A stretch of 64,000 nucleotides of DNA. Source: Undaria pinnatifida. Its lineage: Eukaryota > Sar > Phaeophyceae > Laminariales > Alariaceae. Both the position numbers and the translations under genes were made by a program. The DNA lies in the NCBI GenBank assembly GCA_012845835.1, contig JABAKD010000006.1, positions 7,795,637 to 7,859,636 of the forward strand, given 5' to 3'. Positions 1,931 to 58,770 of this stretch are shown one piece after another (position 1 is the stretch's first letter; the number at the start of each line of letters is the position of its first letter). The notes under the pieces were generated by a model. That model had not been told where the DNA came from and searched no databases. It saw nothing but the letters and a program-made list of their open reading frames with translations.

Positions 1931-1934
1931 ATAT

Positions 1935-3382: not shown

Positions 3383-6300
3383 CTGAGACGGAACGGACAC
3401 ACGGGTTGGGGGGGGAAGGGAGGGGGGCGGAAGGGAGGAGGGGGGACGGGGGGGGGGGGCAGGGGTTGGTTCGTCTCGAACATCTGGTAGACTCTTGGAA
3501 GCCCCCCCCGGCGAAACGCTCAACTGTAGATGGAAATAAACAGAAATGATCGCAGCGACAGCCACCTTCGCCTGTGAAAGTTATGCCAACGCCGCCCATG
3601 AAGTTAGCGTACTTCTAACAAAGCGGCGGGTGTTGCCCGCAATAGCGGGGGTTGCCTCACGCAACACCGCGTTGTGCGAGTACTAGCGTCTCGGTCGCTT
3701 CCAAATCTTCACACACCAGACACACTAGCTGCCGCGAAAACCTCGGGACAAAATTTGGCGGAACGGAGACCGGCTTCCCGCCATTAAAACTGACCTTATG
3801 CAGCAGAGAGGTGCCTCGAGAGAGCAAGACCTCGGCGTCGTCAACAGCGTCACACAGAGCGTCACAAGCCACGAGCGTCGCCTGAAAGTTCGCCGCGCGT
3901 TCGGGCGCCCAACGGAGATGGGGGGTGGGCAGAAAGGAGGCGGGGCGAGGGGAGGGGGGGGGGGCGGGGGGCGTACTCATTTGTTGCTTGCCTTAGCCAT
4001 TTGACCATTGACCACGCATTCCTTTCGAGACGTAACACTGTTCCTGCTCCTAATAGACGCCTCCAATATTTTGGGCGCTCATGAGGCCTCTTCCATATAT
4101 TACATAGAAACTGTTTGCTTATCCATTCCCCGTTCTGTTTCGTTGTCTGCGGCCACCATTTATCTCCTAGGATAGCGATCGTTTTCAGCTACTCCCTAGT
4201 CTACCAAACTCTTCCATGTCACATACGTCCAATTTCCTCATCTCCTCTAACGCATCCCGTTACTAACGCATCCCGTTACTCCTTGTATATTTCACATTTT
4301 CCTACTGTGTGAGTCCTACTCTGTTGTTGTGCCACACGGGCACATATGTGTAGCCATGTCCTCCTCCCGACTACTGGTATATCTCTTTCTTCTTTCTGGT
4401 AGGTCCAGGCCCCCTACAAGAAATCGCAGCTTCAGGTTTTTCGCGTAGTCCATTGAGCCGTGCAGATACGTTTTCATCCCAATATCTTCCCTCAACCCCC
4501 CGTATATCTCCAAGTGCTTGTCCTCTTTCACCCTATTTCTTAGCGCTAGCCTTTCCCTTTCTTCTATTCTTTATTTTACTTCTGTCTTGTACCCGCCAAA
4601 CTTCTCCATAGACAATACCTCTTGTTCTCCCCCTAAATCCTTCCATATTGTCTCGACTACGTTATCCGGGGCGAGAAGGGGGCGGGGGGGGGGGAGGGTG
4701 TGCTCAGTTTGTGCATGGCCGTAGTCGTACGACCATAGACCCTTGCATCCCTAATGTGCCGGGACGAAGCACGTCGGGTTTTTACCAACCAGGCAGGAGG
4801 AGGGGGGGGGAAGAGGGCAACGTAAAAACAACAAAAATTTAGTTCCGTTGTCCTGCCAAAAGAGAAAAAAAAACGTTTTCGTATTATATCGTCTTCCTGG
4901 AAGTTGAAACTTAATACGTGTCCTGAGTTGGCATGACATGAAGGCCTCAAATCCACCCCCGCCAATTTACATTTGATATGAAACAATAACGGAGGAGACG
5001 AAGACCCATGCCACGATCCGGGTATAGTACCTATAGATCGTCAGTTCCCAGTGACGTTAATCCTGGGTGCTGTCAGAGGGTTTCCAACAATCCTCAAGTC
5101 CCCTGCTTTTCAACACTATTTCCGGACCTAATTTCACCGTTGTTTAACCATCTCCTTCCGTCCCTTACACAAAGTTGAAACACAATTTGGCACTGTAGCT
5201 CATCAAGTAGTTCATCAATCATCTACTCGATTATTATTTTCAGTTCTGGGTCGCGTCAAATCGCACATACAACAAACAGACAAGCATTACATGTCATGCG
5301 ATAACAAGCGAACGGGTGTACGCACACGAGCACGCGCGGCCACCGAGTACACGTCACTGCAGCATCGAGGATGCTGCGCACACGAAAACGCTCAGGGCTG
5401 TATTGAATGTTGCACAAACGAGTATAAACTGGCAGAGAGCTGCACACACGAGTACACAGTGACCGCTGTGTGCTGCTGCATGCTCGAGTACACACTGACT
5501 GTTGTGTGCTGTGTTGCTGTGTACTACGGCCGACGTACCTAAACGTGTTTTTGCGTGCGGTACCGTGGGCCTTGGTTATTTTATTACATTTCAATGTTTG
5601 TACCGGCGCAATCTGAAAACATAAAATAAAAAAAAGATCACCAGACGTCCGCCGCGGTCAGAAGAGCTAGCACTACTACCAGTCCCGAGTAGAGAGTACA
5701 ATAGCAGCAGCAGTACTTGCTTTGTACTGTGCTACTCGTAGCTTTCAACAGGCAACGACAGCAGCGGGGAGGGGACAAACCCGCGTGATCTTTGCTGGGG
5801 GCACACACACCCTCTCCAGCTTAGTCAGCTTGTCTTTCTTTGTGCGGTTTTACGAGAAGCAGGAGACGCAGTCTGCTTTTTGCCGAAGATATCCTGTGGG
5901 ACTGTAGTACCAGAGTACGGCAATAGTGTTTCTTCTGTAATATGCACTCGTAGTTTTTCGACTGGCAACGGGGCGGGACCAGACCACAGCAGTACTGCTT
6001 GCTCTGTACTCGTACGTGCTCGTAGCTTTCAACGGGCAACAACGGCGACGGTGAGCGGACAAACCCGCGTATCGTGCGGTGTGATACGTACGCGTGCCAA
6101 TGATGATGACCTCGGCGACTCCATTCATGTTTTACGGGATGAGTTCGCACGAAGACCACAACCCCTATCGCTACAACACGAGTCAGGAGCCAGGAGTATG
6201 CTCTCAACCTTATAAGCGTCACTGGGACCCGTGTGCAGAGCAACCCCTCCGCACGCTATAAGCAGTCTAATGAAGTCGCAGGGTTTTACCTGCGAAATGG

Positions 6301-8108
6301 GATGGGCCACACGATTCCCCATGAGCAACACGCCTCCGCCAGAGGACGCTTCGTACAAACCCTCCGACGCGCTCTGGACGGCGAGATTCACTCGAGACAG
6401 CGCCGCCTGAACGCAAGGCAGCTCTAGCGCATCCTGCGGGGGACGCACGTCGGGTTCACAGCAAATCAAAGGTAAAATTTGACGACAGTCCGGGCACGAA
6501 AACCAAAAAGTGGCAAGATAGGCTGCTGTACTGCAGTTGGGGACGCACGTTGGGTTCAAAGCAGAAATAAACGAAGACAATCCGGGCACGAAAAACAGAC
6601 TACTGACTACTGTAGACAAGCCGGTGCACTGCAGTCGCTACCGAGCATTGATCATAACAACACGTCGCAGTTGGGTATTTCCAAACAGACCACATCGTAT
6701 TTCGGTGATCAGCTTGAAGCGGGGTTCCAATGTACTTGACGCAATTGCTGAACCCTCTCGCGGCGAGGGACGGTCTGCGCACCGTCTGAGCCTCTGAAAG
6801 CAGGAAGCCCGATGTGCACGCCAGCGCCATCACCAACTGGCCCATGAGCTGCGCCGGACCAATCGTCTCCAGGTAGTGCAGGGCCTTCTCTGCCTCCTGG
6901 GATCACCGCATATCATGAAAAGCGTGGGCGGCATCGGCGCACGAGCGCAGCGGCGGCAGGTCAATGCGTAATCGTCGATGAGGTTGTGCCACGTTTGCCT
7001 TGATATGCCCTTGAACGGGGCTATTCGGTTGGTCACAGACTTATGAACCCATCTACTACCGCAACAATTAATCCACACTAAATGTCAGTAAAGTTGTCCC
7101 CCATGGGTGCAGTGACAAAGGGGTTAAATGAAATGACAGCGTCCAAGACGCGAAAAAGCACAACCAAAGCAAACAATAAAACTGGGCGATGCTCGCAGAT
7201 CGCTGTGAGCACCCCCAAAAGAAAATCAGATGTTCTCCGTCGGCGAAAATTCTAGTACACACGAAAAAGCGGGGGCGTAGAAAAGGGTAGCGGACAAACA
7301 TGAAAATGGGCCAGAGTGAGTGCGCCCAGCGTCAACGCCCCCCGTCTCTCCCGGTCTTACGACTACGGCAATGCATGACAATTACTAACCCTCCCCCCCC
7401 CCCCCAAACATGCGAGCGTCTGCACATTTGCACTTGTCAACTAGACACCGCACCCTGCCACAATCATTTCACCTGTGCAGGGCTGAACAAGTTTCGCGGC
7501 CGGGAAACGCCTCCTTCTTCGTTCTCTTCCGCGACCGCGCGCTCCACCTCAAACCAGGCTTCCATCCACTCATTACCCTCCTTCTCATCCACGCCGCATG
7601 AACCACTACCGTCTGCTGCTGCTGCTGCTGCTGCGACCTCCGCTGCGGATCGCCACTCAACCTTACCTCTCCGGCCCCAATCAAGCTGGTGAGAACACGC
7701 CCGAGAAGCCGAGCGGGACAGGGAAGGAGAGGGCTGGGTTGCGACGGTCTTCCTCGGAATAATCGTTTTCCAACCCGAAGACGACACCTCGGAGGTCATG
7801 GGCGGGGCTGATCGGGTGGCCGGCGGCGACGACGGCGGCAGCGGGGCCGGCTCCGCCCCGGCGTTTGCCGCCTCCATTGCGTCTGTACCCCCCCGGAATT
7901 GCAGCGTCCCTCCTAGGTCTGCGCGAGTCGCGTCCTCATCACCCATGGCGGTGCCCACAGCGCCAGGCGCGGCAGTTGCCTCGGAGATACCAGCAGTGGC
8001 GCCTAGAGTACCAGACGCGGAGGTCGAATTGGAGATAGCATCGGTGGCTGTGGCGGTGGTAGTGGTGGTAGTGGTGGTGGTAGTGGTGGTGGTGGTGATG
8101 GTGGTGGT

Positions 8109-8143
<35 letters not shown>

Positions 8144-11100
8144 TGCCCAGAGCGGAAGACGCGGTAGCCGTGTGGGAGACAGCGGCGGTGGTGGTAGTAG
8201 CGGCGGCGCAAGGGGGGACATCCGCCGCGTGGTTCGCTGCTCGATCCACGATGGCAACGACCAAGGCACGCATGGCGTCCTCAACATCAGAAATTCTCGA
8301 TAACAATTCCACGGTTACGCCGTCCGCATCTTGTAACGCCGCGTTTTCTACGCCCGCGTCTTCTAATACCGCGTCTTTTCTTCCTGACTTTTCTGCTCCC
8401 GTGTTTTCCGATTCATGGTATCCTAGTCCCGTGTTTTTCAATCCCGCGTCATCATGCTGCTGCGCGCTCCCGCCCACCCAATTGCGAGGGCTGTACCAGC
8501 GTACAAAGTCGGCGAAAACTGCTCCCGGGTTTTCCCGCTCAAAACAGCGCATGTCGGCCGAGAGCGTGGCGAAGCGAAGACGAGCCAATCGGTTCCTGGA
8601 CACATCGGCGTCGGCACCGTTGGACCCCGCGCGGACACTGGAGCGTGCGGGAAATGCAAGTAGGCATGAGCGGGACACGCAGTTTTGGTGGGGTTGTGTG
8701 TGTTTTTTGTTAAGCCACCCGACAGAGCATGTGCGAGGGCGAGCGAATGCTCACTACCAAGTGTTTACGTGCGAGTGTCGGCGGCGGCGCTAACTAGAAA
8801 TGGAACCATAGCAGAGGCCGTCTGCCGTCCACAAACCCCGGTACGTGCCTTCATTTTTTATCGCACAGAGGGTTCAGCATCCCCACTGCCCCTCCATTTG
8901 CATCGGATGGGGAAGACTGGGCTACGCGAGGGGGGGAGGGGGGGTACGCCTCACCTGAGGCGCCGCACGAGCTCCATCTGCTGTTCCAGCATATCCGATG
9001 TTAGCGGACAGGTTTGCATAAGCTCCGGGACCAAAACCCTGACGGCCAACCGGGCAGCGACAATTATGTTTTAGTGAGACGCAAGAGAACATCGTGGGCT
9101 CCGGGGAGTCGGCCAAAGTAGGCAACATCGAAAAATACATAGCACAAACAATCGATAACACTTTAAGATGACAACAATATCGTACACAAACTCCAAGCAC
9201 TTCATCACGAAAAGCGCGGGTCCAGTTCTAAGCGTGGGGACAGCTCTGTGCGGGTTAACGCCATGCGTACATTGTCTGTACTGGTGCAAGGTGGATGCTC
9301 TCAGAAACCATCAAAAGTTGACTTACCACTCATCCGTGACCAGCAGACGGTCACCGGTGAACTTCATGCTGGCGGTAGCATCAGCAACGGCGGTGGCAGC
9401 CACGCCATGATTCTCTCGACTCCCTCGTACTACCGCCGCCGAAATCGTTGTCGAACCAACTTCCCAATCACCGCGCCCATCCCTCAACGTCTCCCTCCCT
9501 TCGACGCTTCGTTCTTCTAGCGTGTCGCCCTTTTGAGTGGCAGCATCCTCCCGGGCTGCTAGACGAGCCTTGTTCACCGCGCCGCCCGCTTTTCTCACCG
9601 CACCTCCAACCCGCTTAAGGGTGCCGCCAACGCGCCTAACAGCGCCCCCGACTTTCCCGGGGGCCCTCGGCAGATCTACGAGCTCGTTTGATTGTGCGTC
9701 GTCGCCGTCGTCTGCGCCAAGATGAGAAGGTGGGAGAGTTGGCGACGGCTCTGTAGTCTCTTTCGGACCCCCTCCTATCCCCCACCATCTTCGTCCCGTT
9801 GCCTTGGCTCCACCGTTGCCTTCTTTCTTTACTCCAACCCTTCGGAGGATGGCGTCTCTCTCCGCGGCAAACGCAGCCACCTTCGTCTTCTCTGAGTCCC
9901 GCGCCCCGCTCTTTCCCGGGTCGACGGCACCGTTTCCGCCATCGTCCTCGCCACGACTGCTACCCGTCTTGCCGACGGTCTCCGACGGCATCGCCGCTGC
10001 TACGCCTTCGTTCGCAGCACTACCCTCATTGTAGCAACCACTACCGCCGCCACCGCCGCCACCTCCACCACCAACACCACCAACACCATCACCACTGCTG
10101 ACATCGCCGCCACCACCAACACCAACACCACCACCGCCATCACCACCACTGACACCGCCGCCACTCGCGTCCGTGGAAGAAAATCCATCCGTTTCGCTTC
10201 TTTCAAGGGCGCTTGGTGGCAGAAAGCACGCTAACCCCGCCGCCCCCTGCTCATCACGCGGCAGCTCCCCGCTGGGTTCCCCGCGAGCACCTGTTTCTGG
10301 TCCCCCGCTAGCGTTAACATGAGGCGCGCCCCATGACGCCGCAGAAGCTGACGTCAGTCCGACAGGCGAAGAGCGCGTGGACAACGCGACCACCCTCGCT
10401 CTGTTCTGCTCGGCCACGCAGCAGTTCAGCATCTGGAGCTTCTGATGGATTAGGCAGGTTCTGCGGGGATTTGTAAGCGTGGGCGGGGGTGAAAAAGGGC
10501 GATGGCGGGCGTGGGTGAGAATTAAAGCTGTGAGTTTAGCTGTAAGTCGCCGACTCGTAAGTAGTTGGCTAGGACAACGCGATTGTTCTCGCTCTGTTCT
10601 GCTCGGCGACGTTGCAATTCAGCAACTTCTAAAGCTTCTGATGGATTAGGCAGGTTTTGCGGGAGGTCCAAACGTGGACGGTTGGAAGGAGAAGGAGACG
10701 GCAGGCGCGGGTGACGAGTGGGTCACAACTAGAGCTGTGAGTCGGCTATTTTTTTTTGTCATTTTTGGTTTCAATCTTCCGGACAAGCCGTGATCACAGG
10801 TGCCTGTTCAGCTACGCAGCAGTTCAGCACCTGGAGTGTTTCTCGGATTGAGCAGGTTCGGCGGGTGTTCAAAGAGTGGGCGGTTGGCGGCGGCGGGCGT
10901 GGGTGACGAACGGATAAGGTCGGCACTGGGGCGGGGAGTTAGCTGACCATAGTCACAGACTAACAACCATATAGCTAGGACAACGCGACCGTCCTCGATC
11001 TGTTATGCGCGGCCATGCAGCAGCATCTGGGGTTTTTGACGTTTTGGTGGGATAGGCGGGTTTAGCGGGTATATCCAATCGTGGGCGGTTGGCGACGGCG

Positions 11101-13370
11101 GGCGGGTGACAAACGGGTCAGGTCAGCACTAGGGCTGTCGGTTGGCTGATTGTAAGTCGCCGATTAGAAAATACCAGGTACCAGGTAGTTGGCAAGGCCA
11201 CCGCGACCGTCCTTACTATGTTGCGTCCGGCCACGCAGCAATTCAGCATCTGGAGCTTTTGATGTTCTGATGGATTAAGCGGGTTCAGCGGGTATTCCAA
11301 ATGTGGGCGGTTGGCGACGGCGGGCGTGGGTGACGAACGGGTCAGGCCAGCACTAGAGCTGTCAGCTGGCTGACTATAAGTCGCCGACTAGTAAATAATT
11401 GGCTAAGAAAACCGGCCTCGCTCTGTTCTGTTCGGCCAGGCAGCAGTTCAGCATCTGGAGTTTTTGATTGATCAGGCAGGTTTTGCGGGTGTTCTAAGCT
11501 TCGTCATGCACCTGAAACCTAGGCGTCCAGTCTAGCCAACTCACAACCCTCGCTAGCACGGCAGCGCCGCTAGTGCTTCAACGAGAGTCATGCTACGCAC
11601 CCCATACGCTCACCTCATGTCCGGTGGAGGTGGCGAAAACGCGGTCCCGCTAGTCCCTCCCGTCCCGCCCGACGACACAGAGCGAGGCCGAGCGAAGTCT
11701 CCGCCCCCATCACCCCCCTGTTTGCAGTCACCCTGGGCCGACCCGCTCTGTCCGCAAACTTCCGTGTTCCATCTGGCGCCGTCGGCGGCATCCACAGCGG
11801 CGGTCATATGCCGCCGAAGTCGAGCCGACCCCGCGGCATCTTGTCCGGTAGCCGACGGATCATACATACTGTATCCGTCTACTGGAGGCTCCGGGTCCTG
11901 CGCGCGGTAGACGTTCGCGGGGCGAGGGGACGAGTTGCGGGCCGCGTGTACATCGGTGTGTGTGTAAACTCGTGCGTGCCGGGGGGCGGGTGGGAGGCAT
12001 GACCATTTGTTGCATGCCTCAGTCGTTTGGCCATTAATCACGCGTCCCTTTCGAGATGGAGCACGGGGGAGTGGAGGGGCGTACCGACGTGTTTACAAGG
12101 TGCAATTATCTTGGACCAGCCTTGGACAAAATAGTGTTGGAATGCATTTGAATTTAAACCCTTGCCCTTGAAACCATGATGCCTGTCGAGGCTCTCTGGC
12201 TCTGTCTTTGTGATAAGAGCAGCAGAGGTGGCCCCGAGTGTCTGTGATCCACGTTCCAAGGATCTCTAACCCTAACCGTAATCCCGACCGCCTAGGAAGC
12301 CTATCGGAACAAGATTAAATGAAGCGATAGTGTCGCCCATAAACCATTTTATCGAAGCTGAGTCAAGTCGCATACTAGGTACATTGCTCATATTAAAAGC
12401 CTTTCAGAAGCGGGTGGGTGGATGGTTTCCCGCACCTCCCCCCGCCCCCAAGTTGCTACGGCAGCACTGTCGTTTCGGTAAACCAGCTTAATTGGCATTG
12501 AATGTGGTGAGCCCATGCTCCGTTTCACCCATCCGCCGGAGGATATACAAACCAAAGCGAACCCTCAAAAACAGGAGCGAGGGCAGCTTCGATCAGCTAG
12601 AGAATTTCCCGATTACCTCCGCCGCTCTCGTGGGCATCATCACGCAATGTGTTCTAGCCGTACGGAAGGCGAGAAGGGAGCCTTCCGTCCGGGAGACACC
12701 GCGCGTCTCGAGGCCAATCCCAGCGTGACCCCCTCCCCCCCCCAACACGTGCTGCGATAGGGATCTTTTTTGGTTTTTAAGCTATTTCTGATCGACGGGG
12801 CTTCCCGACCAAAATCGTTGCAATACAGTACCTTGATTGTTGTGACAGTATTGCGCACCTCTGACAGATCAGGATCTAGACCATATAGATCAGCTAGATC
12901 ATCTACAGCACGTTCCAGATCTGCCGTTATGAGGTGCTGTGTTGGGATCTGGATCTGTAGAGTACAATCTAACCCAGGAAACACGTGCTGGATCATGCAG
13001 ATGTACGGCACCCACCCGGTAACATGAGCTAGACCATACAGATCTTACGTAAAATATCTACCGTAGGTAATCAAGTAAGGATCGGTGAGCTGCCCGAGGT
13101 GTGAAGCATTGTTCGGCGTACACTTATCACGGGAGGCCATAATAACCAGAACCCACGATACACACAAGAATCTACATATTCCCCCACTAGCAGATTTACT
13201 AACAAGGTCCCTACTACAGAATACAGAAAGCACGTCTGTCTGTGTGTACACGTCTGTCTGTCTGCCTGCCTGCCTGTCTGTCTGTCGGTCTTCTGTCTGT
13301 CTGTCTGTCCGTCCGTCCGTCTGTCCGTCTGTCCGTCTGTTCGTCGGTCTGTCGGCCGGTCGGTCTGTCG

Positions 13371-13410
<40 letters not shown>

Positions 13411-13434
13411 GCCTGCCTGTCTGTCTGTCTGAAA

Positions 13435-13498
<64 letters not shown>

Positions 13499-14950
13499 TG
13501 TCTGTCTGTCCTGTCTGTCTGTCCGTCTGTCATCATGGCCTCGCCACTCAGAGTGTTTCAGCCCCGTCTTGCCCTATGGGTAGGGAGGGTGGGTGGGCGA
13601 CAAAGCCAGCACAACACCAGATCTCGCTCGGTTCAAATTACCACCTGATAAGTTCCCCCGTAACAGGCCAATGGGATGATTACATCGCGCTGCCACTTCC
13701 ACTTCTGAAAAAAAAAACATTTTTGGGGTGGAGGTATAGAGCTGCTCAATTGACCACTCCCCAAAAAGCTAGGTGCATCCCGACCGCAGCCTGCGTCCCA
13801 GACGCGTGCTACGACACAGGTATTAAGTTATACCACTTTTTGGCTAAGATAATTTGTGAATGACGGGGCTCCTCAGCTCGAACTCATTGGAAACGTCGTT
13901 CTTGTTTTGCAATATGAATAGTGGCACGTGCTACGATAGAGGTAGCACTTTTCGACTGAAACGGTTTCTGAAAAATGGGGCTCCTTAACCTAAAATTGTC
14001 CGAATTTTGGCCATTTTTAAACGAAGTTTTTGTTGTATACCTAGGCCATGGGACGTTTCATCATCTGGTGCAGTTCCATTTTCCTCCAAATCAGTTTTGG
14101 GGTTAAGAAGGACATGTATAAGCTCCTAAAATCAGGAACCCCAGAAAAAAGTCGTAGCACTCGTCTAGTTTGTGTACGGAGGCCATGGGTTTGGTACCGC
14201 GCGCCCACAGCAGTCGTATGTGTACCATGCGTTCGTATTTTTTCGTCGTTGGTTTTTGACGTGGGACATGCATTTCATGGCAGCAGAGTATATCGTGCCG
14301 TGTATGGTGACGGGGTGCACTTTCAGTTTACTCAAAATAAGCTATTTGGGGTAGATATAGAGCTGCTCAAGCGACCCTCCTCCAGAAAAGCTAGAGGGCA
14401 CCCCTGCCGTACCCTCAGTAGCGTGCGTCCCACAATACACCGAATGCGATGGTATCATCGGTCCTCAAATGACCCAGTTCTCCGTTTTGATCTTCAGACG
14501 GAGCACTAACGCCCCACTAAACAGGCCGAAAGGGGGGTTCTCGTCTTTTTTTTTTCTTACCATTCGCGGCACGCAGGCGCCCTCTTCCCAGAGGAACCGG
14601 AGCTCTTGCACGAACGACTTCCAGAACGCAGCGACGTCGCCGAGGCAAACCCCATGCGTTCCTGGAGGGGGGGGCGGGGGGGCAAGCGGTCAGACACAAA
14701 GGGGGCGCGGTAGGCAACGCCTCGACGTGACAGCCTTCCGGCCCACAATACTCGTGCACTTGTGTTTATTGTCTGGCGTGCGACTTGCCGCGGGCGAGTG
14801 CATGGTTTTGCTTTTTTATTTTCGTTTCATGGGGTACTCTTCCACTCCAGAGTGGCTGGAGCCTGCCTTGTGACCACGAGACTGGAGTACGGCGACGAGT
14901 TAACGTGAGAACAACAATACCCACAACAACAGCAGCAACAACAACAACAA

Positions 14951-15039
<89 letters not shown>

Positions 15040-18000
15040 CACCCCTGCCCGTTCGGCAATGCTCCTGACTGGTCCACGAAGGCTTTCGATTTTATAAGTT
15101 CGTGTGGACAGCGCAAACGTCATGCCGCGAAAGCCTGTGCTCCACGTCGGAAAGCCCATCCAGGGCCGTATTCCATGTGTTATTAACGCTTATACTTCGA
15201 AGTAGTTCGTATGGTAAGGAGCCTGGGGACAAAAACGATAGGGGCAATTATTCACTTCAACATCCTCCCTACTGCAAACAGTTACAGTGGGGTACTCGAT
15301 TTAAGAGCGACCATAACAGGAGAAATCAGACGTAAGAGCGGTCAAATCGGCTTGCCACGCCCTGTGACGCTGACGCATACACTAAAACCTGCCACCAGGC
15401 ATATGATACCCAAACTGACATGAGAGCGGCACGGAGACAAGAGCGGTAACACTGGCCTGTTCTAAGGGGCTCTTAAATGCTACGGTGGAGGTACACCTTT
15501 TGGGGGGGAGGGGTCTTCCCTTGAAGAGCCCTATACCTCACCCAAAAACTGATTTTTGAGGGAAAACTGAAATTCCAACCCGGTGAGCAAAACCGTGGCC
15601 TAGGTATACAAACAACCACATGTCGCAAAACATGAATGGTCTAGTTCCGACGATTTCGGGTCAAGGGGCCGCGTCATCCATGATTTTTTTTAGCCAAAAA
15701 GTGCTACGTCTGCTATCGTAGCACGCGTCTGTACCCAATCAAATTCCAAGCAGTTTGTCCTAGGAACGCGGCTGCAGTCCTGCAGGGGCTATAACCTCTG
15801 ACAACGGCAGAGCGACGAGCAAACGGAGGGTGTTAGAGTACTGCGCTTGGAAGCCTGGTGGAGGCTTACGATTCGGGATATCGGTTCAAGAACACGGGAT
15901 AAAAGGGTTGCACATGCCCTGAACGGCATGTGCATGCAGGGAACCAGAGGCTGGCGAATTACACGAACTTGTCAAGCCATTTTCGGCCAGTTCCTCCCGT
16001 GAGCGAGGATTAATACAAGAAAACTCCTTCGAGGGTACACACGTAAGTGGCACTGCGAGACCTGCTTAACAGAGAGACCCACAAGGGGATACTCTGTTGG
16101 CCCAGGCTTATCATAATAAGGGCTCACCAAATCGAGCCGCCTCCAGCGCCACCTGAGACACCAATCGGCAGGCAGGGGCGCCCCCGCGAGGCACCCACAA
16201 CCACGGCGTGGCACCGCCGTCAGCCACAGCTCCGTCCACCCCACACTCTCCTCGGGGCGGGGTTCGCCCGATAGAACCTCCGCTATCCGTCCCCCCAATC
16301 GCGTAGGCACGAGTGTCAAACCCTGGACTACGACCTCCAACAGCCGCTGGTGGCCAGGGCAAAGGGGACAAGCTCTGCTCGTTCCCCTTTAGCGGGGTTT
16401 TTGTCCGGGATGGCGTTTCTTTGGGCGGTGTCGATGTCGGCGTCTTCGCCTGCTGCTGCTGCTGCTGCCGGTGGTCTTGGGAGTCCCATGACCCACGACC
16501 GCTCTTGCTGGCGCCCTGCGTGTCTCGGTAGCTAAGCGAGGCGCGCCGGGGCGTGAGGAGGTAGCGCACCGAGTGGACGATCTCGGCAGGGTCTGCCCGT
16601 CGCGTGTTGAAACGCAACGATTACCCCGAACGATAAATACCCCGCGTGAAGATTACCCCGCGTGTCAATTATCACGTGTGACCATTACCCCGAAGAATGA
16701 TTACCGCGCATGTTGATTAACCCCGCGTGATGATTCCCCCGAGTGACAATTAGTGCGATGATTACCCGGTGAGACGATTACCCAGAGCGGAGGAGGGGGA
16801 AAGGGAGGTGGGGGGGAGGGGAGGGGAAAACGCGCGAGGCATCGGATCAGCGAATTAATTTGATAAAACATCCGCGATGGGTGATGACACGGGAGGGATG
16901 TATGTCGGCGGGGCGAACACACAAGGTGCACAAGCGTAGGAGCAACCAAGGGGGTGAGGCTCGCTTTCTTCTGGTAACCCCGACCGGTTGTTTTCTACAG
17001 TGGAGCCATGCCACAGTATAGGGGAGCGGGGTGGAGGCGGGGCGGGGAGGGGCGTACTCATTTGTTGCTCGTCTTACGTAGTCCAGCCGACTCGCAACCC
17101 TAACAATTGACCAGTTTATTATTTCGTCAGTTTCACAATCCAGCTTAACTCGCAAAAGGATTTCATTTTTTATCGCGCATGGGGTTCAGCATTCCCACTT
17201 GTCGGCCTTTTTGCGCTCGTCGAATTTCATCCAACCATGCACTCGGTGAGACTTGAACCCACGACCTTGGCGTTGGTAGGGATGAGATTCACCTACTACT
17301 CCCTTGGGGATGCCGACTGTATCGCGGCGTGACTCAGCTGCCGTCAAACTTAGCGACGCGCGTGTCGCTGCTAGGGGTGTATGCACCACGTTGACATGGC
17401 ATTCGGCATAGCGTACTAACTTGGCTCTAGTGGCATCATAATGACAATATTGGACTTAACTACGAGCACACCAGGAATACCTGAAGGAATACTAGAAAAA
17501 CGTGAAGTAAAATAGAAGAAGCTAACAAAAAAAGAGCCCAAATCGAATAAAAGCACAGAATGGATGTAAGCCTGCCGTAGTCACCGCCTCACCAGCACCC
17601 TGAACGTCTCCGTCTCCTCCGGCGCTTGCGTTGTGCTGAGTCGTCGCCCTCATCTGCGCGATGAGTGCTCGCGTGCCCGGGCCTAAGACCGCGCCGATGT
17701 GCATTGCCCCCTCCCTCGCCGACGACACATCCGCCTGACAAAAACAAAAGACAAACACAAAGGAGGCCGGAACGAGGACCAGACGGGTCGGGGGGTGGCC
17801 AAGGACACGGTTGGCAGGGGTACTCATTTCATGCATGGCCGTAGTTACAACGCCATTCACCCTCGCATCCGGAAAGGAGCATGACGGATTTTACCCACCA
17901 GTGCACGGTAGGGGGAGGGGGGGGTCGTACTCATTGGTTGCGTGCCTTAGTCATTTGACCATTGACCCCGCATCCCTTTCGAGGCGGAGCACCGGGAAGG

Positions 18001-32387: not shown

Positions 32388-35300
32388 GTGAGGGGCAGGG
32401 GCGGGGTAGTGAGGGAGGGGGAAAGGGGAACACGAATGGCCTCTCGGGCCATACTGCTATTTGAACGTTGATTGTTCATGATTAATTGTTGATGATGATT
32501 TATCGATTATTGATTGGTTGGATGTCGATTGTTGATAGCAGTATGTATAGTGCCGGCTGAGTAGTACTGTTTGCCCGCCATAGCGACTGTAAGATCGATT
32601 GGCACAGATGAGAACAACCAGTAGTGGCGGCACGTGGAGTAGTGCCGGATGCTGCTGTAGTGCCGGTATTTCCGGCTGGCACTGTAAGATCGATTGGCAC
32701 AGATGAGAACAACCAGTAGTGGCGGCACGTGGAGTAGTGCCGGATGCTGCTTTAGTGCCGGTATTTCCGGCTGGCACATACCGGCGCTGTAGAGGGACAG
32801 CTACTGTGCTTCTTTTTTTTTTTCGACTGAATAGTTGTTGATTTAGTTGGTGTTGGTGATTGATGGTTGATGGCATGGCATGGGTGTGGGCTTCGCCTTT
32901 CGTCAAGAGGAAGCCACCCATAACCCGTCGCAACGTTATGAGTCTTCCCTGACTCCCCCTTTCCTCCCGTATCCCCTCCCTGTCGAACGGCATCTTGTTG
33001 CAGGCGCAGATACGCCACGGTTTTCATTCCGGAAGAAGAGCTTCGAGAAAAAGTCCCGCCAGAAGTTTTTGATCAGCTACGGTAAGGTAGATTAGGGGGG
33101 GGGGGAGGGTGCTCATTTGTTGCTTGCCTGCCTTAGTCAGTTGACCATTGACCACGCATCCCTTTCGAGACGGAGCACCGTTTCTACTCCCAGTAGAGAC
33201 ACCTCCAACGTTTGGGCGCTCAGTACGCTTCTTCAAACTATTACGTAATTTGTTGTTCTCATCTTACCTCCTTCCTGTTGGCCGACTGTGGCCACCATCT
33301 ATTTGCTAGGATAGTGTTATGGAAATGTTAGCACATAGCCAGTATGAGTCAATGTTCAGTAGCACTGCACTTGTACGTCGTAGATCATCGTAGATCTGTT
33401 ATGTGTCGGTTCGTATGTAACGTGCGTATGAATATGCGGAGGAATTACTTCTGTAGGATCCTCTGTTGCCTTGACGAGCACTCTCTCGTGTGGATCCTTC
33501 CGGATTGTCTAGCATCGTAGCCATCCTGGTCATCTCCAGTACCCCGCCAACTTCTGGACTTCTGCATAGTCTGCGGTTTATCTGTGTGTGTTGGCCACAT
33601 AAGCGCCAGTGTTTACAACATCTTTACATCTTCTCCTCAACACGGAAGCACTCGAGTCTTCCAGGCTATCCACTGCACAGTGTCACCAACCCGACTAGCG
33701 TCGGGGACACAGCCTCTCTGCCACCGTGCTGGGGTATACCACAATATCCATAATAGATAGTGATCGTTTTCTCGTAACTATCTAATGTACCAAACTTTTT
33801 CCGTTTCACGCCCGTTTAATTGCGCCTCGTTTTCTCCTCTAACATATTTCGTTCCTCCTTGTATAGTCAACATCCACATTCTCCTACCAAGTGGGTTCTA
33901 CTCTCGTTTGAGTTGCCACAAGGGCAGATCTGGTAGATTGGGGGGGGGCAGTTCGCAAAAGATGACGGGGGGGGTCGGAGACGGGGAGGGTGGAGGGAGA
34001 GACGGGGGGGGGGGTAGTGATGGGCGAGGGGTGGCTGAGCGGAGACCCGTGAATGGGTCAGGCGGGGATGAGAGTCACTTGAATATAGCATTGAAACATT
34101 TCGTGCTTTACGAGTACAGCCGAACGGTAGCAAAGCATGCACTCTGCAGAGAGAAATGGAAGGCTTGCATGTGCCAGGTATCATTTATAGCGTCCACGAA
34201 ACACCGTCCGCCGCCTGCAGCAGCACTTCAACTCCGACAATTCTACACGCGCTGCAGCGCGTACGCGAAAAACACACACTAGCCACGGCAAGGGTGAGCC
34301 GCAAACGGCGAACCAACATCAATGCCAGCCTCTGCAGGGACCACGGTGAAGGCCGAGCACCATTCACTGCCTGTCACATATATATATTAGGCCCTTTCGG
34401 CGAAATGCTCAACATCGGCTAAGACGCGCCCGCGCTTGATTACATCAAGCCACATAGAGGAGGAAGGGGGGTAGGGGCTCAGCCCACCCTCTATCAGGCA
34501 GTTGTGATCGCACTGGCCTTATTATGTTCGAACAAATATTAATAGGAAATTGATCAACAAGTTTTCGCCACCGATAAACAACTGACCGAAAAACCACGCC
34601 CGAGGCCACCGCCACAAACCCCACTAACACCTGCATTGCTACTGTTGGGAGACCGGTCATTTGGGGCACGTCAACGCCTTGTTTGGCCTTATTATGCTTG
34701 TTCTAGTATACCAGGCGGTCAGCCAAGGGGTCAAACCGAAACCTCCCAACAGTTGCTGGCTCTGTCGTCTACTTGCGGTGCTTTATTTTTGTCCCTACTT
34801 CTGCAACAGACGAATCTGGCACGTGGATCAGCAGGGGCGGGTGGCTACCCCCATCGACTTCACGGCAACGCTGAGCTACGTTAACTTCCTGAACCACTCC
34901 GACCAGGCACGAACTGTCTATTGCTGTCTATTGTACACTGTCTACTGCCTATAGCCTACTGTGCTACTGTCTACAGTTTACCGTCTACTGTCCACTGTTT
35001 TCTACGATGTGTGTTATCTGGTAAATGGTCAAACCGCGTGACGACTTCTACTGCGTTTGTGCTCTTGATAGGCCAACGCGCTTGCTTCAATCCTACTACG
35101 GTATTACGGTATCACTCAGTTTGTGCTGCAGGTTGGCCTGTGACCTCGATGGCCCCTGCCATACTGTCACTGCCGCGCGTGGTTTATTTACAGCTAGGGT
35201 CCTCACGAAGAGTCTTCCCACGCTAGGAGCGCAGCAGAAGTTTACGACCTCCCAGAACGAGACGCTCAATATCTCACCCTAAACACGACTTCGAAGACAT

Positions 35301-36019: not shown

Positions 36020-36105
36020 CCCCTTCCGAACTGCACCCACGTTTCTGGGGACAGACTACTTGGAAATAAAGTGGGATAGTTTTTGCCGTGATAAAAGGGT
36101 CGGAC
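36016..36105 (+). mobile_element. TTAA-type short element fused to the SET stop codon
   Basis: ATAACCCCTTCCGAACTGC begins at the stop codon of the SET gene, followed by the family block CACGTTTCTGGGGACAGACT. The right end is diverged (GATAAAAGGGTC). Confidence 0.55.
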
Positions 36106-37083: not shown

Positions 37084-37400
37084 TGTTAAGCCGCGGGCGA
37101 CGACAGAGGCAGCACTTTTTTTACGCGTGCGACGATAGAGGTATACCTTTTTTTGGCGAAAATGATTTCTGAATGACGGGGCTTCTTAACCCAAAATCGT
37201 CGGAAATAGGACATTTTTTTTTGTGCATGATTCTCGTTGTATACCTAGGCCATGGGAATTTACATCCGGTACTACAGCAGCAGCAGTTTTTATTCTTCTC
37301 CACATCAGTTTGTGGGAGAGGTCTTAAGCTCCTAATGTGAGGAACCTCAGAAAAAAAGTGTACAATACACCTCTATCGTACAGTGGCACGCGTCTTTTTG
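37084..37400 (+). mobile_element. MITE with CCATGGCCTAGG core, copy 3
   Basis: The left end has CGTGCGACGATAGAGGTATACC, the middle TATACCTAGGCCATGGGAAT, and the right end TACACCTCTATCGTACAGTG, so the terminal inverted repeat is well kept. A further partial copy follows to about 37640. Confidence 0.7.
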
Positions 37401-39315: not shown

Positions 39316-39474
39316 AAGCTTTTGTTAATTTCATGTGATGAATACTGGTTGCGGTAGCCACGAAACAAGAGCTATACCGGGGGTGTTCCGCGCCAACTGC
39401 CGGTACAAGAAATTATTTTTCAGGAATCACCATGCATCTCGGCAACGCTACAAGTAGATGGTCAAGGTACCCCC

Positions 39475-40095
39475 GCTACGGCGTCTCACGACTCTCTTCT
39501 CTTTTCTCTCGATCGATCGGTCTCTCGCTCGAGGAAAAGAGAGAGCCGGTTTGGCTCGCGCCGGCCCGAACCGACCGGGGCCCTCCAACGGCAAAGTAGT
39601 CCACGCAAGACCGTTGTGCGGTATGGGCATCAGGGAGTGCGACTGAAACATGAACATTGGTTGCAAATATTGATATCTCACACTTTCTTTTGGCGCTGTT
39701 GTTGCGTCGTATGTTTATTGCGATTGACACACGCTGCCCGCTATCGGATGGCAAACACAATAATAACTCATGCCATGGTTCATCAGGGAGAGCGAACAAG
39801 TTGTTTCAAAGTCAGTCTTTGGGGGTTGGGCATAGAGCTCATGTTGGGATTCTGATAAAAACTAGGTAGCCCTTCTGCCGTGGCACGTCTCTCTCTCTTC
39901 TGCTCTCTCTCGATCGACAACCCCGGGTCTCCCTTTCTCTCTCGATCAAGGAAATGAGACAGAGAGAGCTGGTTTATGTCGCTCGCATCGGCCCGAACAT
40001 GGTCCCTTCTTAAGTCTCAACGACCATCAAACGAGAAGTGTAAGACAAGGTAAGACCGTTGCACGCTATGGGCACCAGGGGAGGCAGCTGGATCT
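39475..40095 (+). repeat. ~430-bp imperfect tandem duplication
   Basis: Both copies have a CTCTCTCGATCGA-rich block, a GGCCCGAAC block and GACCGTTGTGCGGTATGGGC or its near copy GACCGTTGCACGCTATGGGC. Confidence 0.65.
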
Positions 40096-40426
40096 TAAAT
40101 CACGCTTGCATGCAGGTGACCGTCCTCGCCCAGAACAGTACCTTATTGCTGCAATTCTCCTGCCAACGCCCCATGCTAAGCACCTCGCCCCCCCCCCTGG
40201 CCGTCGTCCCCTCCCTTCATCATCCCTCCTCCTACCCCCCCCCCTTCTTCAGCACCTCCTTACCTACCGCGCCCCTCTCGGCTCCTCCTCTTCAGCACCT
40301 CCCCTCCTGCCCCTTCCCCCCCCCCCCCTCCCTTCCCCGGTCACTTCCACCTACCAAATCCTTCAGTGTTCCAGAAAAAAAAACTGTTTTTGTTTCGAAA
40401 TGGACTAAATAAAAAGATATTCAGGT

Positions 40427-40627
40427 TCAGGCAACCGCAAAGGTCGCAGCTACCCGATCGAACGCAGACTCAGCATTGGCCAAAGACTTTACGTACGGGT
40501 GCTGGGGGTGAGCGGTCTTAAGCTGATGAATGTATCGGTCCAAAAAGGACGCGGGCTTGCCGAGGTGGCGGCCGCAGCAGATCAGGTTCACCAGCGCGTC
40601 CGCGTCGTTTGCGCTCTTGCTGATGGC
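40427..40627 (-). CDS. COPE: COPE exon 7 (C-terminus, stop)
   Basis: The acceptor is ctgcaactccag|GCC. It encodes 66 residues to a TGA stop, including DALVNLICCGRHLGKP and LKTAHPQHPYVKSL, the conserved C-terminal helices of epsilon-COP. Confidence 0.93.
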   Translation of the reverse strand, partial: AISKSANDADALVNLICCGRHLGKPASFLDRYIHQLKTAHPQHPYVKSLANAESAFDRVAATFAVA

Positions 40628-43600
40628 CTGGAGTTGCAGAAAATGTGACGGGGGGGGGGGGGGGAGGGGGGGAGGGAAGGAAGGGGCAAGGGGAGGGCAA
40701 GGGAGAGGGGGGAGGAAGGAGGGGAGAGGAGGGGGGGGGGCGAGGAGGGGAGAGGAAGGAGGGGGGAAGAGACACGCACGCGCAAAGTGTCACGAAAATA
40801 TCGAATCAACAGAAAGCAAGTACCTAGAATACAGGTGTGCAGAGCCAGGGGTGGTGTTGCAATATCGTACTAGGAGGGTCCAGCGGTGACCACCCCAGTC
40901 ACAATTAAAAGCACCCCCTTCCCCTCTTCAGTACCAAAACAAGCGTACCAAAACATCCTTACGCTTGCACGAGAAAAGAAAAAAACACGCAGCATTAGAA
41001 CGACGGTTCACAATATGTCCTTGAAAGTCTGTTTTTTTTTCAGGTTAGAGTTGAAGCAAAACAACGGGCGGGTGGGTTAGTCAGACCCCACGGAAGAAGT
41101 ATGATATTATCATATCATACATACGCCGCGGGCCGGGGTTTCCATTCAAGAGGGCCTGGAACAAGAGGGTTGACGTTGGCGGGAATTGGGGGACGAGGGC
41201 GTCTTCGTGGGGGTTCGAAACTCCGCGGCCACAATGGCGATTTCATCGTGATTCGACATTTGCTAAAAATCTTGATTCGACATTTGCTCAAAAGGTCAGG
41301 TATTTGGGGATGCCTGTCATGCCACCTTAGGCAGATATATAGATAGATATGGATGGGGCGCCGCGCCTCTACCTAGAATATCAGGTCAGGTATTTGGGGA
41401 TGCCTGTCATGCCACCTTAGGCAGATACATAGATAGATGATCGGGCGCCGCGCCTCTACCTAGAATATCAAGCCAGGGGTACGGAGGCGGTGGGGCTTGA
41501 CTTCGACACGTTGCCCGCCGTTCAGCTTGAATTGGTCTGTTGTCTATCTACCTCTATCTATCTGTCTGCCTGTCGGCCGGTCTACCTTACCTACTCACCT
41601 ACCTGCACCCTCACAACATCTGTTATATGTTCTCTCATGAATATCGAGTACCCCCCCCCCGCCCCCCTCTTTACCCGACTCCCGTACTCCTTCCCCTCTC
41701 CTTCCACCCCCTCCCACACCAGGAGCCAGTTACACGCCCAAAACACCCCCCGTAACGTCTCGCCCACCTCGATCAGACTGCTCTCCGCCTCTTGGTATTC
41801 CCCCATGTGCATCTTCGCCACGGCATGGCTGTTCAGCAACATAGGAGATGCCTGCCCAACACCCGAGAAACCCCGTGCGTCGTCAAATGTGGGGAAATAC
41901 AAGAAAAATGTCACTTAATTATCACTTTCGCATTTTCGCTCGCCTCGGCGGCTGATGTCAGGCTTACATCCATCTTGATCGCCTTTGCCTACTTCATATG
42001 CTTTTTGCCGGATAAGAAAAAAAGTATGGTACCATACTCTTCCCGTATTATTTTCCCCCCAATTATGATCGTTACGCTCGAAAAAAAGCCCCAAAAAACG
42101 ATTGTGACATTTTTGTGATGTTAAAAACGTCCAGTTATGCCAGCTATTAAAAGCGACATTGATACTGCGTATAAACCTGTTTAATAGCTGCAGTTCAGCA
42201 ACAGAGGAGACACCTGACAACACCCTAGGAAACCCCCGCGACATTATTTTTGGGGAAGCTACGCACTAGCAGACACCCGATTTTAATTTTTCGCTCGACA
42301 CGGCGCTGTTTAGTATCAGAGATGCCCTCCAACAACACCCGAGAACACCCTCCGTGTCGCTAAATTAGAGTACAAAACACGTGTTCCGTATCAAAAGATG
42401 TCCACGTTTCATGGTCCTCCGCTACAGCAATGTTGTTAGCAGGTGGGGGGGGGACGCAGGCAATTGTCATAAAAAAACAAAAACACGCGACAAAAAAAAA
42501 AGTGTTTCTATCAAAAACGTTGAAAAAAAAACACAACACGTAAAAAAAGGCCAAGGCAAAAAAGGCATTCCACTGAACACTAAGCGTTCCACTCTGTCCG
42601 GAAATCAAGGACATATTTGTATTGAAGTTAGTATACTGACGGTTCTTGTATTTACGGATAGATTATCACGCCGTAAGGGTAAGCAAGGGCAGGATGCTAC
42701 TCACCTGATACTTGTCGATGAGCTCATCGAAGATGTAAGCCGCCTCCTGGTAGCGCTTTCCCCCCTGCGCGAGGAGCCAGGGTATAGGGTGGAGCATCCC
42801 ACAACGGTAGGGCTGTGAGTTGGTTGAGGTGAGTGGCTGATTGAAAGTCGCCAACTAACAACGTGCTAATTGGGTAGGTGTTACAGATGGTTGCGCGCGT
42901 TAATTCGCGGAGGTGCGCATGTTCGCAGCTTACAAGTATAGCGCGTTCATGGCTTGACGTGTGGTGCATACTAGGGTGTTGCGAACTACCTGGTACCAAC
43001 TTTAGTTGGGAAAGAGTTGGGTAGGAAAATGTATTAAGAATAGTATTGAAACCGCCAAACGTCACAGCCTAAGGCCAACCCAACCCACGACAAAGCAGCG
43101 AAACACTAGGTTCGAAAATACTCTTTCCTTCCACTTTTTTTCTTCCGACACAAATTTTCGTTGGTTGGTTTTGAGTAACGACATTCGTCGGTTTCAACAC
43201 TATTTTCACATTTTTTTCCACCCGACAGAGGTTAGAAATTGCAAACACTCTACGAAAAAAGACACTTTCAGTTGCTTGGTTTTAGTTCGCCATCCAACCA
43301 CTAACTCGCTGCCAAATTCAGGAAACTCACAACCCCACAAAACGGCGTGGTCAACTAGTAGAGCCAGAAGCGCGAGGAGTCAACACGCCCAACGATATTC
43401 TGCATTCTAAATTAGCGTCCTGAGGACTGCAACCACGTTTCGGGAACAAACCACTTGGGGTTGTATAGAGTGGGTTAATTTTGCGGTACAGCATAGAAGG
43501 GTTACACCTATAATTAACAAGGTTTTGCATGTTGTACCAGGCGGTGGCTGAGCGGCTGAGCGCGTGAGCGCGCGCGGGGGGGGGAGGGTACTCATTTGTT

Positions 43601-46600
43601 GCTTGCCTTAGTCATTTGACCATTAACCACGCGTCCCGTTCGACACGGCGCACCGTTCCTACTCGTAATAGAGACACCTCCAACATTTGAGGGGGGGGGG
43701 GGGGGAAGGGGGTGTCTAATCTCACGTCTCCGAGTAAGAAGGAAGCCTTACTCGACCTATAGTAGCCCTTGTGACTTGCAAAAAAAGGGGGACTTTCTAC
43801 TTGCAATTAGGGTGGAATATGCTTTGCAGTTGAAAACGGCTAATCAGACTGCTACCCGATTCAAGTAGTCTTCTCGACTACAAACGACTAGAATTTAATA
43901 TTCAATCATCAATCAATCGACCACTCGCGACATGACAGGACCCGACTGGACTCGCCTGCGCCATGTGCACCCAAGCAATCACGAGCTGCGTCAATGTCGC
44001 ATCTTCGTCCGCTTGCTGCAGCACCCTCACCTGGGAAGGGGAAGACGGGGGCGGGGGGGCGAGGGGGGCGGCGTGATCGAAAATTACTGCACGTCAGGAA
44101 GACAATTGAGTACGCTGTTCCCTTCTTATTGAGTACGCTACCCTCCTTGAGACAATGATTACGATGTCCCCTTGCAGAGGTGATCATGCAAGAGGACGCA
44201 CGTTCTGTACTACAGTACAGCACTACCTGCAACTGCTCTACAGTCTACAGAGAGCAGACGTCGCCAAATACCCACAACTAGATGTACCTGTCACGTGAGT
44301 GTACAGCAAACTCGTCGGAAATGTTGAGAACGTCGATCAAAAGCCTGACATCTCCCAACCATATCCGCAGCACCGCCCGCTAACCGTCGTAGCACCAACA
44401 TGTACACAAGACATCGATCATGCCCCCCGTTCCCTATACAAGCATGCCCTCGGAGTTCCCCCACCTGCTTCAAGGCCAGATACCATAACACAAACAGTTA
44501 CATCCCTCGTCCCCGGCACAAGCATCCTCTCGGAATTCCACCTCCCTGCTTCAAGGCCAGATATAACAACATAAGCAATGATCCCCTCCGTCCTCTGTAT
44601 AAGCATACCGTCGGCTCTCCCCCCTGCTTCAAGGCCAGATATAACATAAGCTATCATCCCCCTGTACTCTCTATAAGCATACCCTTGGAACTCCCAAATC
44701 TGCTTCAAGGCCAGATACAACATAACCGATCATGTCCCCCGTCCCCTCTAGAAGCATGCCCTCGGATCTCCACCCACCCAATTCAATGCAAGATAAAACA
44801 GCGTAAGCAATCATGTCCCACATCTCCTATACAAGATTTCCCTCGGAACTCCCCCCACCTGTTTCAAGGCCAGGTCCACCCGGTCCATCTTTAGGTAGAT
44901 CTGGGCAAGCATCGCCCTCCTGTGAGGACAGGAGAGGGCAAATGATGAGGGTCAAGAAAAAAAAACAGGATTCTATACGAAAACTGTCACGGAAAATTCC
45001 AGGATTTAGACCTGACTGGCTCTCACGAACGGTTCGACCAATCAGTAGACCTTACTATTTATTCGACACTATGGTTGACGCACGTGTACGAGACGAAGAG
45101 GACTAGCTCCAAGCATTGATCGATTGTGTTGGGATCAGGGCCATAAAAGGGATCGTTGTATCCGCACCGTACACAGTGATGAAAACACGACAAAACATAA
45201 ACTTCAGACAACAAACAAACAAAAAAGCACATTGCCCCATGGTGACCCCCCGATTGATGGTCCGGGCGGCCTCCTTAAACCCATTACGGCTGGAAGCCCA
45301 TTTTCGGGTATAAATTACATGGAGCTGGTATACGTTTTTTGTTGGGGCTCTAAAGGGGTTAACGTCGCCCTCGTGTACAAAGGAAAAAAAGTACTCAACA
45401 CATGAAAAATCACCAAAAAACAAAAATATAAAAACTAAAAGGAAAAATCGCACACAGCAAAAAAGTTACTGCTCAATGGTAACCCCCGTTGTTGATTGCC
45501 CGGCCGGTCGGCCTCCTTAACGTCGCTCTCGTGCATGAATGAACACGACAAAAAAGGCAAAACACACGCAAAACAAACACAAAAACACCACAGGAGGAAA
45601 AACCAAACCCTCAAGAAAAAAAAAAAAAACACCCGCAACATTTACTGCTACAAACATACAAACACAAACAAAAAAACACTAGAAAAAAGGAAAATGAAAA
45701 ATACACGAAAAAAATGAACGCCCGCAAAAACTTACTGCTCCTTGGTAATAAAAACTTACTGTTCCATGGTAACAAAAACTTACTGCTCCATGGTAACTCC
45801 GTTGTTGATGGTCCGGGCGGCCTCCTTCACGTCCCCCTCGTGCATGAAGATCGCCGCCGCCAGCAGCTGCACTGTGGGGTTGTTGCACGACGCCGGGTCG
45901 CTCAGCCACACTTTGAGGGTTCCGATGATGATCTCCCGACTGGCGGGGGAAGACAGATACTGCGCCGTGAGCCGCACCGCTTGGAGGGCCGGGGGGGCGT
46001 CGTCCTTGATCTGTCGGCGAGCAAATGACATTTCAATGGTTTTGCAAGAGGGTGGGGGGGGGGGGGGGGGGTCGGGGGGGCGTCATCCAAGTCATCCTTG
46101 ATCTGTCAGCGAGATAATATACCAATTGAGGCGTTTCGCAGGGGGGAGGGGGTCAGGGGGGGGTGGTTCGTTATAATATTTCGACGCTTTTTTCCAAGTA
46201 AACTAAACTGTATAGCTCTTTGGGCTGGTCGGTGTTACTTGTCCGGTTAGTTGCTTGCGCGGTGGCTGCTCATCTTTTCTTTGTTTCCAAGAGATTTTTT
46301 TCATGCTATCGTATCATTTGTACCTGGTAGTTTCGCTCATAGGAACGCCCTTTTCACCTGTGACACCCTCGGGATTTCAAGCCACAAACACGTCCCGAAG
46401 GGAACCCTCGCACACGTCGAACAGATCACCGATCCCCACTTGATTAACTAGATATTTCAGGGAAGATCTGTATGGCATTTAGCTCATGTTACCGGGAGGG
46501 AGCCGTGCGATCTGCATGATCTAACAAACGTTTCCAGGGTTGGATCTGTACTTTTTATGTACAGATCCTGCACAACATCTCAGACGATCCTGCACAACAT

Positions 46601-58750: not shown

Positions 58751-58770
58751 ACAACAGAAATGTAACTCAC

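What the first reader, a model, noticed from the sequence alone, without database searches (positions are those of the whole stretch)
6290..46100. Splice-junction duplication recurs in at least five introns of two genes
The same pattern appears at RAB3GAP1 exon 11 (acceptor, six units), RAB3GAP1 exon 15 (acceptor, two units), COPE exon 2 (donor, several copies; acceptor copy near 46090), COPE exon 3 (donor, six units of ~78 bp) and COPE exon 6 (acceptor, two decayed copies). Both 5' and 3' splice sites are involved, always with the duplicate inside the intron and the outermost copy functional. So many cases in about 40 kb look like a mutational habit of this genome, possibly template switching or repair at junctions. 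I know of no named mechanism.
Basis: partly seen in the sequence, partly recalled or inferred. Interest (0 to 1): 0.82.

Follow-up and report, generated by a model that had tools for sequence, protein, structure and literature searches.

The report
Intron-wide local duplications reaching exon ends
Copies of exon ends really do lie in the neighbouring introns of this genome, but they look like the edges of small duplications that are common throughout its introns, not a process aimed at splice sites.

Summary
Five of the six named junctions in COPE and RAB3GAP1 have intronic copies holding both exon-end and adjoining intron sequence; at RAB3GAP1 exon 15 only intron sequence is duplicated. It is not confined to this window. 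In 15 other genes of this 511 Mb genome, 15 of 143 exon ends have a direct copy in the adjacent intron, against 1 of 143 reverse complements and 1 of 321 tests 60 nt or more inside exons.

Junctions do not stand out as hot spots. Random points inside introns have local copies about as often: 121 of 1073, against 11 of 83 junctions with the same 800-nt search (p = 0.59). 42 of 78 introns hold a direct local repeat, 8 of 78 an inverted one. A uniform-rate model with decay on the intron side only expects 7.3 of 83; 10 were seen (P = 0.19).

Best explanation: frequent local, probably tandem, duplication in non-coding DNA. Units that cross a junction survive because the extra copy is spliced out. 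A small excess at one score cut-off (P = 0.04) keeps a weak junction effect possible. One oddity: all five decoy acceptors at RAB3GAP1 exon 11 lack AG.

The parts
10460..11489 (-). RAB3GAP1 exon 11 acceptor array: functional acceptor (first exon base 10460) and five intronic copies at 10574-10663, 10804-10883, 10980-11088, 11199-11310, 11416-11489; spacing about 180-220 nt; all five copies lack AG at the aligned site
   Evidence: exon start supported by homology to human RAB3GAP1
6433..6563 (-). RAB3GAP1 exon 15 acceptor (first exon base 6433) with one duplicated stretch of intron end only (6539-6563), no exon sequence
45725..45797 (-). COPE exon 2 donor: three 24-bp tandem units across the exon-intron boundary (first intron base 45783)
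45460..45539 (-). copy of COPE exon 2 end (65 nt of exon, 10 of intron), 67/75 identical, GT kept
45218..45276 (-). copy of COPE exon 2 end (44 nt of exon, 13 of intron), 47/57 identical, GT kept
46066..46152 (-). copy of COPE exon 2 acceptor region, 61/76 identical
   Evidence: junction test p 0.0025
44417..44873 (-). COPE exon 3 donor array, 5.8 units of 81 bp (at least 15 nt of exon plus intron in each copy)
   Evidence: one place in the genome
42190..42350 (-). two decayed copies of COPE exon 6 acceptor (42190-42257 AG kept; 42295-42350 AG lost)
41293..41477 (-). comparison case: local direct duplication inside COPE intron 6, away from the junctions, 93% identical
32586..32777 (.). comparison case: head-to-tail duplication, 2 x 95 bp at 99% identity, not at any named or modelled junction

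Best explanation
This genome makes short local direct (probably tandem) duplications at a high rate in non-coding DNA, with spacing mostly about 75-365 nt, some iterated into arrays. Shown: junction-crossing copies occur at about the rate found at other intronic points. Inferred: a duplication crossing a donor or acceptor leaves the outer exon whole and adds a second splice site within the intron; as long as the spliceosome keeps using the outer site, the mRNA is unchanged, the duplication can drift to fixation, and only the intron side decays. Duplications wholly inside exons alter the protein and are lost. Direct orientation, regular arrays and copies that run across the splice site point to a DNA-level event (slippage, template switching or end-joining); which of these was not determined.
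For: 15 of 143 exon ends in 15 fresh genes have an adjacent-intron direct copy; reverse complement 1 of 143; 60-100 nt inside exons 1 of 321. Intronic pseudo-junctions 121 of 1073 (intron-resampled interval 0.082-0.148) vs junctions 11 of 83 over the same 800 nt, p = 0.59. 42 of 78 introns have direct and 8 of 78 inverted local pairs (COPE included). Direct coverage: introns 189 of 2111, gene flanks 63 of 852, swapped control 2 of 545, exon interiors 0 of 94. Uniform neutral model: 12.5 of 143 expected at exon ends, 12 seen (the 143 were searched over up to 2000 nt, the model rate comes from 800 nt); over 800 nt for both, 7.3 of 83 expected, 10 seen, P = 0.19. 35 of 47 copies listed span the splice site. 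Of 8 young duplications found in the window, 1 is at a named or modelled junction.
Against: At score >= 50 junctions exceed pseudo-junctions, 6/83 vs 25/1073, p = 0.02; the model expects 2.5 of 83, P = 0.037. At score >= 60 the excess is gone (1/83 vs 16/1073). Copies fall off faster into the exon than the model says (0 of 129 at 60 nt, 3.9 expected, P = 0.019), which hints at extra selection. On the acceptor side, coverage in the 300 nt before the exon (0.05-0.08) is lower than further in (0.11-0.16), and 0 of 50 windows starting 20 nt inside the exon had a copy. The rate is not uniform everywhere: 0 of 104 in window 1-5600, 11 of 248 in 50900-64000, 43 of 462 in 12000-37000. Only 37 of 124 intronic direct pairs are clearly head-to-tail, so tandem origin is inferred for the rest. 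COPE is richer than average. Pseudo-junction points within one intron are not independent.
Confidence: 0.83

Rival explanations
1. A junction-targeted mutational process (template switching or repair at exon-intron boundaries, for example linked to R-loops or splicing) makes these duplications.
For: Exon ends strongly exceed exon middles (15/143 vs 1/321). Excess over intronic points at score >= 50 (6/83 vs 25/1073, p = 0.02; P = 0.037 against the model).
Against: No significant excess at p <= 0.005 (11/83 vs 121/1073, p = 0.59), at score >= 30 (10/83 vs 78/1073, p = 0.13) or at score >= 60 (1/83 vs 16/1073); donor-side coverage similar from exon end to 800 nt into the intron; gene flanks similar to introns; copy ends lie at many distances from the junction.
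Confidence: 0.08
2. The copies are remnants of a mobile element or introner-like family that carries the sequence.
For: Dispersed repeats exist in the window.
Against: The COPE exon 3 array has a single place in the genome (a search that skips simple repeats and very common words); each copy was found as a match to its own gene's exon end, in direct orientation. The same test for three other stretches did not complete.
Confidence: 0.02
3. RNA-mediated origin: reverse splicing or reverse transcription of message writes exon ends back into introns.
For: Exon sequence is involved; at two of twelve junctions aligned the copy stops at or before the splice site.
Against: 35 of 47 copies span the site and run on into intron sequence in genomic order; similar duplications occur inside introns and in gene flanks.
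Confidence: 0.02
4. The copies are kept by selection as alternative or regulatory splice sites rather than being neutral leftovers.
For: Donor decoys keep GT in 17 of 23, expected 15.6. Arrays of up to six units exist at single junctions.
Against: GT retention is no higher than local identity predicts (P(>=obs) = 0.35); the copies' identities (74-93%) lie in the range of intronic direct repeats (69-92% at the 10th-90th percentile).
Confidence: 0.05

Closest known systems
Internal gene duplication (Gao & Lynch 2009, PNAS; not held; known here through its citation in PMC4974935)
   Same: Duplications of segments within genes, said there to be commonly observed.
   Different: That work is cited for intron creation and for duplicated whole introns; here the exon-end copies lie inside existing introns. 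How far it treats this case I could not read.
Tandem duplication across an intron-exon boundary in potato RdRp (PMC4974935, abstract and passages seen)
   Same: A tandem duplicate that holds the 3' part of an intron and the 5' part of the next exon, with a duplicated 3' splice site.
   Different: In potato the duplicate gave a new intron; here the extra copy sits within the old intron and at some junctions forms an array.
Intron gain from tandem exon duplication in Drosophila (PMC2891723, passages seen)
   Same: Regional tandem duplications at splice motifs as the mutational source.
   Different: Those cases are new intron positions; these lie within existing introns.
Decoy splice sites and exonic splice enhancers in intron-rich genomes, Ectocarpus among the examples (PMC4476162, passages seen)
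   Same: Offers a proposed reason why true sites are chosen although decoys lie in the introns.
   Different: The passages I saw treat decoys in general and do not mention duplicated exon ends.

Membership tests
Local tandem duplication spanning an exon-intron boundary | Direct orientation relative to the source | tested here: met
   15/143 direct vs 1/143 reverse complement; 42/78 vs 8/78 introns
Local tandem duplication spanning an exon-intron boundary | Copy contains both exon and intron sequence in genomic order | tested here: met
   35 of 47 copies listed span the splice site with exon sequence aligned; the other 12, including RAB3GAP1 exon 15, do not
Local tandem duplication spanning an exon-intron boundary | Head-to-tail adjacency | tested here: inconclusive
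   Clear in COPE exon 2 and exon 3 arrays; 37 of 124 intronic pairs aligned over at least 0.8 of their offset; others too decayed or spaced
Junction-targeted duplication process | Rate at junctions above that at other intronic points | tested here: not met
   11/83 vs 121/1073, p = 0.59; model 7.3 expected vs 10 seen of 83, P = 0.19; but 6/83 vs 25/1073 at score >= 50, p = 0.02
Introner-like element | Same sequence in introns of many genes | tested here: not met
   COPE exon 3 array found at one place only; only this one array could be tested
Intron gain by tandem duplication | A new intron at a new position | not testable with these tools
   No transcripts and no related genomes were available

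The most novel reading that the evidence does not exclude
Junction-crossing duplications arise neutrally, but splicing then sorts them: upstream decoy acceptors must be disarmed because the first AG after a branch point tends to be used, while decoy donors downstream of the true donor are tolerated. RAB3GAP1 exon 11, where five of five acceptor copies lack AG in four different ways while their surroundings are 68-100% kept, would be the clearest case in this sample.
Probability: 0.15. Interest if true: 0.55.

Novelty: new member of a known kind. Interest (0 to 1): 0.3.

Why it matters
A genome in which, in this sample, about one exon end in ten has a recognisable copy in its own intron is a natural supply of near-identical competing splice sites. 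With RNA-seq it could show how the spliceosome picks the true site. It is also a caution: an excess of exon-end copies over exon middles is expected from survivorship alone and does not show a junction-specific mutation process.

Tried and rejected
Junction hot spot: not supported by the intronic pseudo-junction control. Earlier, smaller runs gave 13/93 vs 104/949 and 10/74 vs 90/986, p = 0.22. A donor-acceptor difference in the coverage profile was not clear in the larger junction set (9/78 donors, 6/65 acceptors), though at score >= 30 it is 9/78 vs 3/65. General disarming of decoy splice sites: acceptors keep AG in 6 of 14 against 10.1 expected (P = 0.015), but this is carried by RAB3GAP1 exon 11 (0 of 5); genes outside the window keep 13 of 18 donors and 5 of 7 acceptors. 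A first simulation with unlimited exon length predicted more copies deep in exons; with real exon lengths the fit improved.

Rows set aside or unstable: acceptor A 10581 was found because its copies showed up in a profile search, so it is out of the count; it is. Low-scoring hits (B A 19170, C A 14160, C D 6476, R A 2093) came and went between random repeats, so counts vary by one or two. Two of the 14 hits gave no alignment at score 36 or more. Exons shorter than 40 nt, and junctions with less than 200 nt of target, were dropped. 14 of the 15 exons I added by hand from the profile search gave at least one splice site. Splice sites were predicted from homology plus a hand-made weight matrix recalled from general knowledge, not from transcripts; unmodelled exons may lie in some 'introns'.

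Literature searches; the listings shown (10-20 papers each; 9, none) held no paper on exon-end copies in brown algal introns by title or abstract start, but only open-licence papers are held. Gao & Lynch 2009 and PMC3787667 were not held.
Full report
What is there. The window is 64 kb of a 511 Mb, 68-contig genome. COPE and RAB3GAP1 lie on the minus strand. I modelled COPE as seven exons with GT-AG sites and one GC donor. Against swapped sequence, 4 of 12 COPE junctions pass p <= 0.005.

Is it local to this window? No. I located conserved genes by Pfam families PF00118, PF01602 and PF00995, fetched 15 gene regions outside the window, and predicted splice sites from homology, reading frame and splice consensus. 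The first 93 junctions gave 14 exon ends with a copy in the adjacent intron at p <= 0.005, and none for reverse complements. The final set gave 15 of 143, with 1 of 143 for reverse complements. Of those first 14, 12 gave alignments at score 36 or more, and in 10 of the 12 the copy crosses the splice site; copies are 74-93% identical. Some junctions have several: five copies at one CCT donor at offsets 274, 357, 518, 605 and 688, four at another, three at a third at offsets 111, 231 and 400.

Is the junction special? Taking 40-mers at random points inside introns and searching the adjoining 800 nt gives 121 of 1073 (11.3%; interval 8.2-14.8% with introns resampled), against 11 of 83 junctions (13.3%) searched over the same length; Fisher p = 0.59. 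On the donor side, coverage by local direct copies is 0.15 in the last 40 nt of the exon and 0.07-0.16 over the next 1200 nt of intron, but about 0.02 further than 60 nt inside the exon; on the acceptor side it is 0.08 at the exon start, 0-0.06 deeper in the exon, and 0.05-0.16 in the intron; inverted copies are at 0-0.04 (CCT genes and COPE). Of 78 introns (COPE included), 42 have a direct local repeat and 8 an inverted one; the smallest spacing per intron has median 114.5 nt. Gene flanks are similar to introns (63 of 852 vs 189 of 2111), and 40-mers tested against other genes give 2 of 545. Other stretches vary: 0 of 104 in window 1-5600, 11 of 248 in 50900-64000, 43 of 462 in 12000-37000, 18 of 173 in the 10 kb before the window.

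A simple model. I simulated duplications at a uniform rate, with spacing drawn from introns, exon lengths from the data, wholly exonic or whole-exon duplications removed, and decay on the intron side only for exon ends but on both sides for intronic points. Scaled to the intronic rate at score >= 30, it predicts 12.5 of 143 copies at exon ends (12 seen), 9.7 of 141 at 20 nt inside (6 seen), 6.8 of 140 at 40 nt (3 seen), 3.9 of 129 at 60 nt (0 seen, P = 0.019), 2.3 of 110 at 80 nt and 1.2 of 82 at 100 nt (0 seen in both). One caveat: the 143 junctions were searched over up to 2000 nt, while the scaling rate comes from 800 nt. With 800 nt for both, 7.3 of 83 are expected and 10 seen (P = 0.19). 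So the exon-end rate does not require a junction effect. Two results fit less well: the steeper fall into the exon, and a junction excess at score >= 50 (6/83 vs 25/1073, p = 0.02; 2.5 expected by the model, P = 0.037), which is absent at score >= 60 (1/83 vs 16/1073).

How it probably works. A tandem duplication that crosses a donor or acceptor leaves the outer exon whole and adds a second splice site inside the intron. If splicing keeps to the outer site, nothing changes in the message, so the event is nearly neutral and the inner copy decays. This accounts for both splice-site types, for the duplicate lying inside the intron, and for the emptiness of exon middles. The choice of the outer site is inferred. 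Exonic splice enhancers, whose use the authors of PMC4476162 link to decoy sites and report as extensive in the brown alga Ectocarpus (passages seen), are a plausible reason if this is a brown alga, which I did not test.

Decoy sites. In copies aligned across the site, donors keep GT in 17 of 23 (15.6 expected from local identity) and acceptors keep AG in 6 of 14 (10.1 expected, P = 0.015). The acceptor deficit comes from RAB3GAP1 exon 11, where all five copies lack AG (AA, AA, TG, TA, CG). In genes outside the window the figures are 13 of 18 and 5 of 7. Donor against acceptor is not significant (Fisher p = 0.085), and copies within an array are not independent, so this is a lead and no more.

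Known ground. Tandem duplication across an intron-exon boundary, and tandem duplication as a source of new introns, are described (PMC4974935; PMC2891723; passages seen). In Ectocarpus tandem repeats are reported as relatively evenly distributed across the genome (PMC12477816, passages seen), which would agree with a genome-wide process in a related organism. What is added here is a measured rate of such copies at splice junctions in a sample of one genome, and a control in which intronic points show a similar rate.

Changes made on checking: the model comparison now states its unequal search lengths and gives the equal-length figure, and the result at score >= 50 is set out more fully; confidence in the main explanation was lowered from 0.85 to 0.83 and the junction-process rival raised from 0.07 to 0.08 for that reason.

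Noticed in passing
window 10460-11489 (-): All five intronic copies of the RAB3GAP1 exon 11 acceptor lack AG (AA, AA, TG, TA, CG); the copy nearest the exon is identical at 26 of 26 scored neighbouring positions.
   Followed up: partly
window 27220-27759: About 30 copies of an 18-bp unit; on the minus strand it reads as a proline- and isoleucine-rich repeat (NPIPNA-like) in open frames of 154 and 196 aa. Possibly coding.
   Followed up: partly
window 3956-4186, 17909-17994, 33093-33314, 43571-43689, 53105-53355: A dispersed repeat of about 80-250 bp in both orientations, roughly 69-87% alike, one copy within COPE intron 4; looks like a short mobile element family.
   Followed up: no
window 10051-10164 (-): A 51-bp repeat (2.2 copies) inside the long open frame of RAB3GAP1 exon 11, in a glycine-rich stretch: perhaps a tandem duplication tolerated in coding sequence.
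   Followed up: no
window 13234-13531 and 14910-15039: Long microsatellites: about 74 units of GTCT and 43 of AAC.
   Followed up: no
COPE exon 4 donor, window 43955: The exon 4 donor appears to be GC (CAG|GCGAGT); GC donors were also predicted in some CCT and adaptin genes.
   Followed up: no
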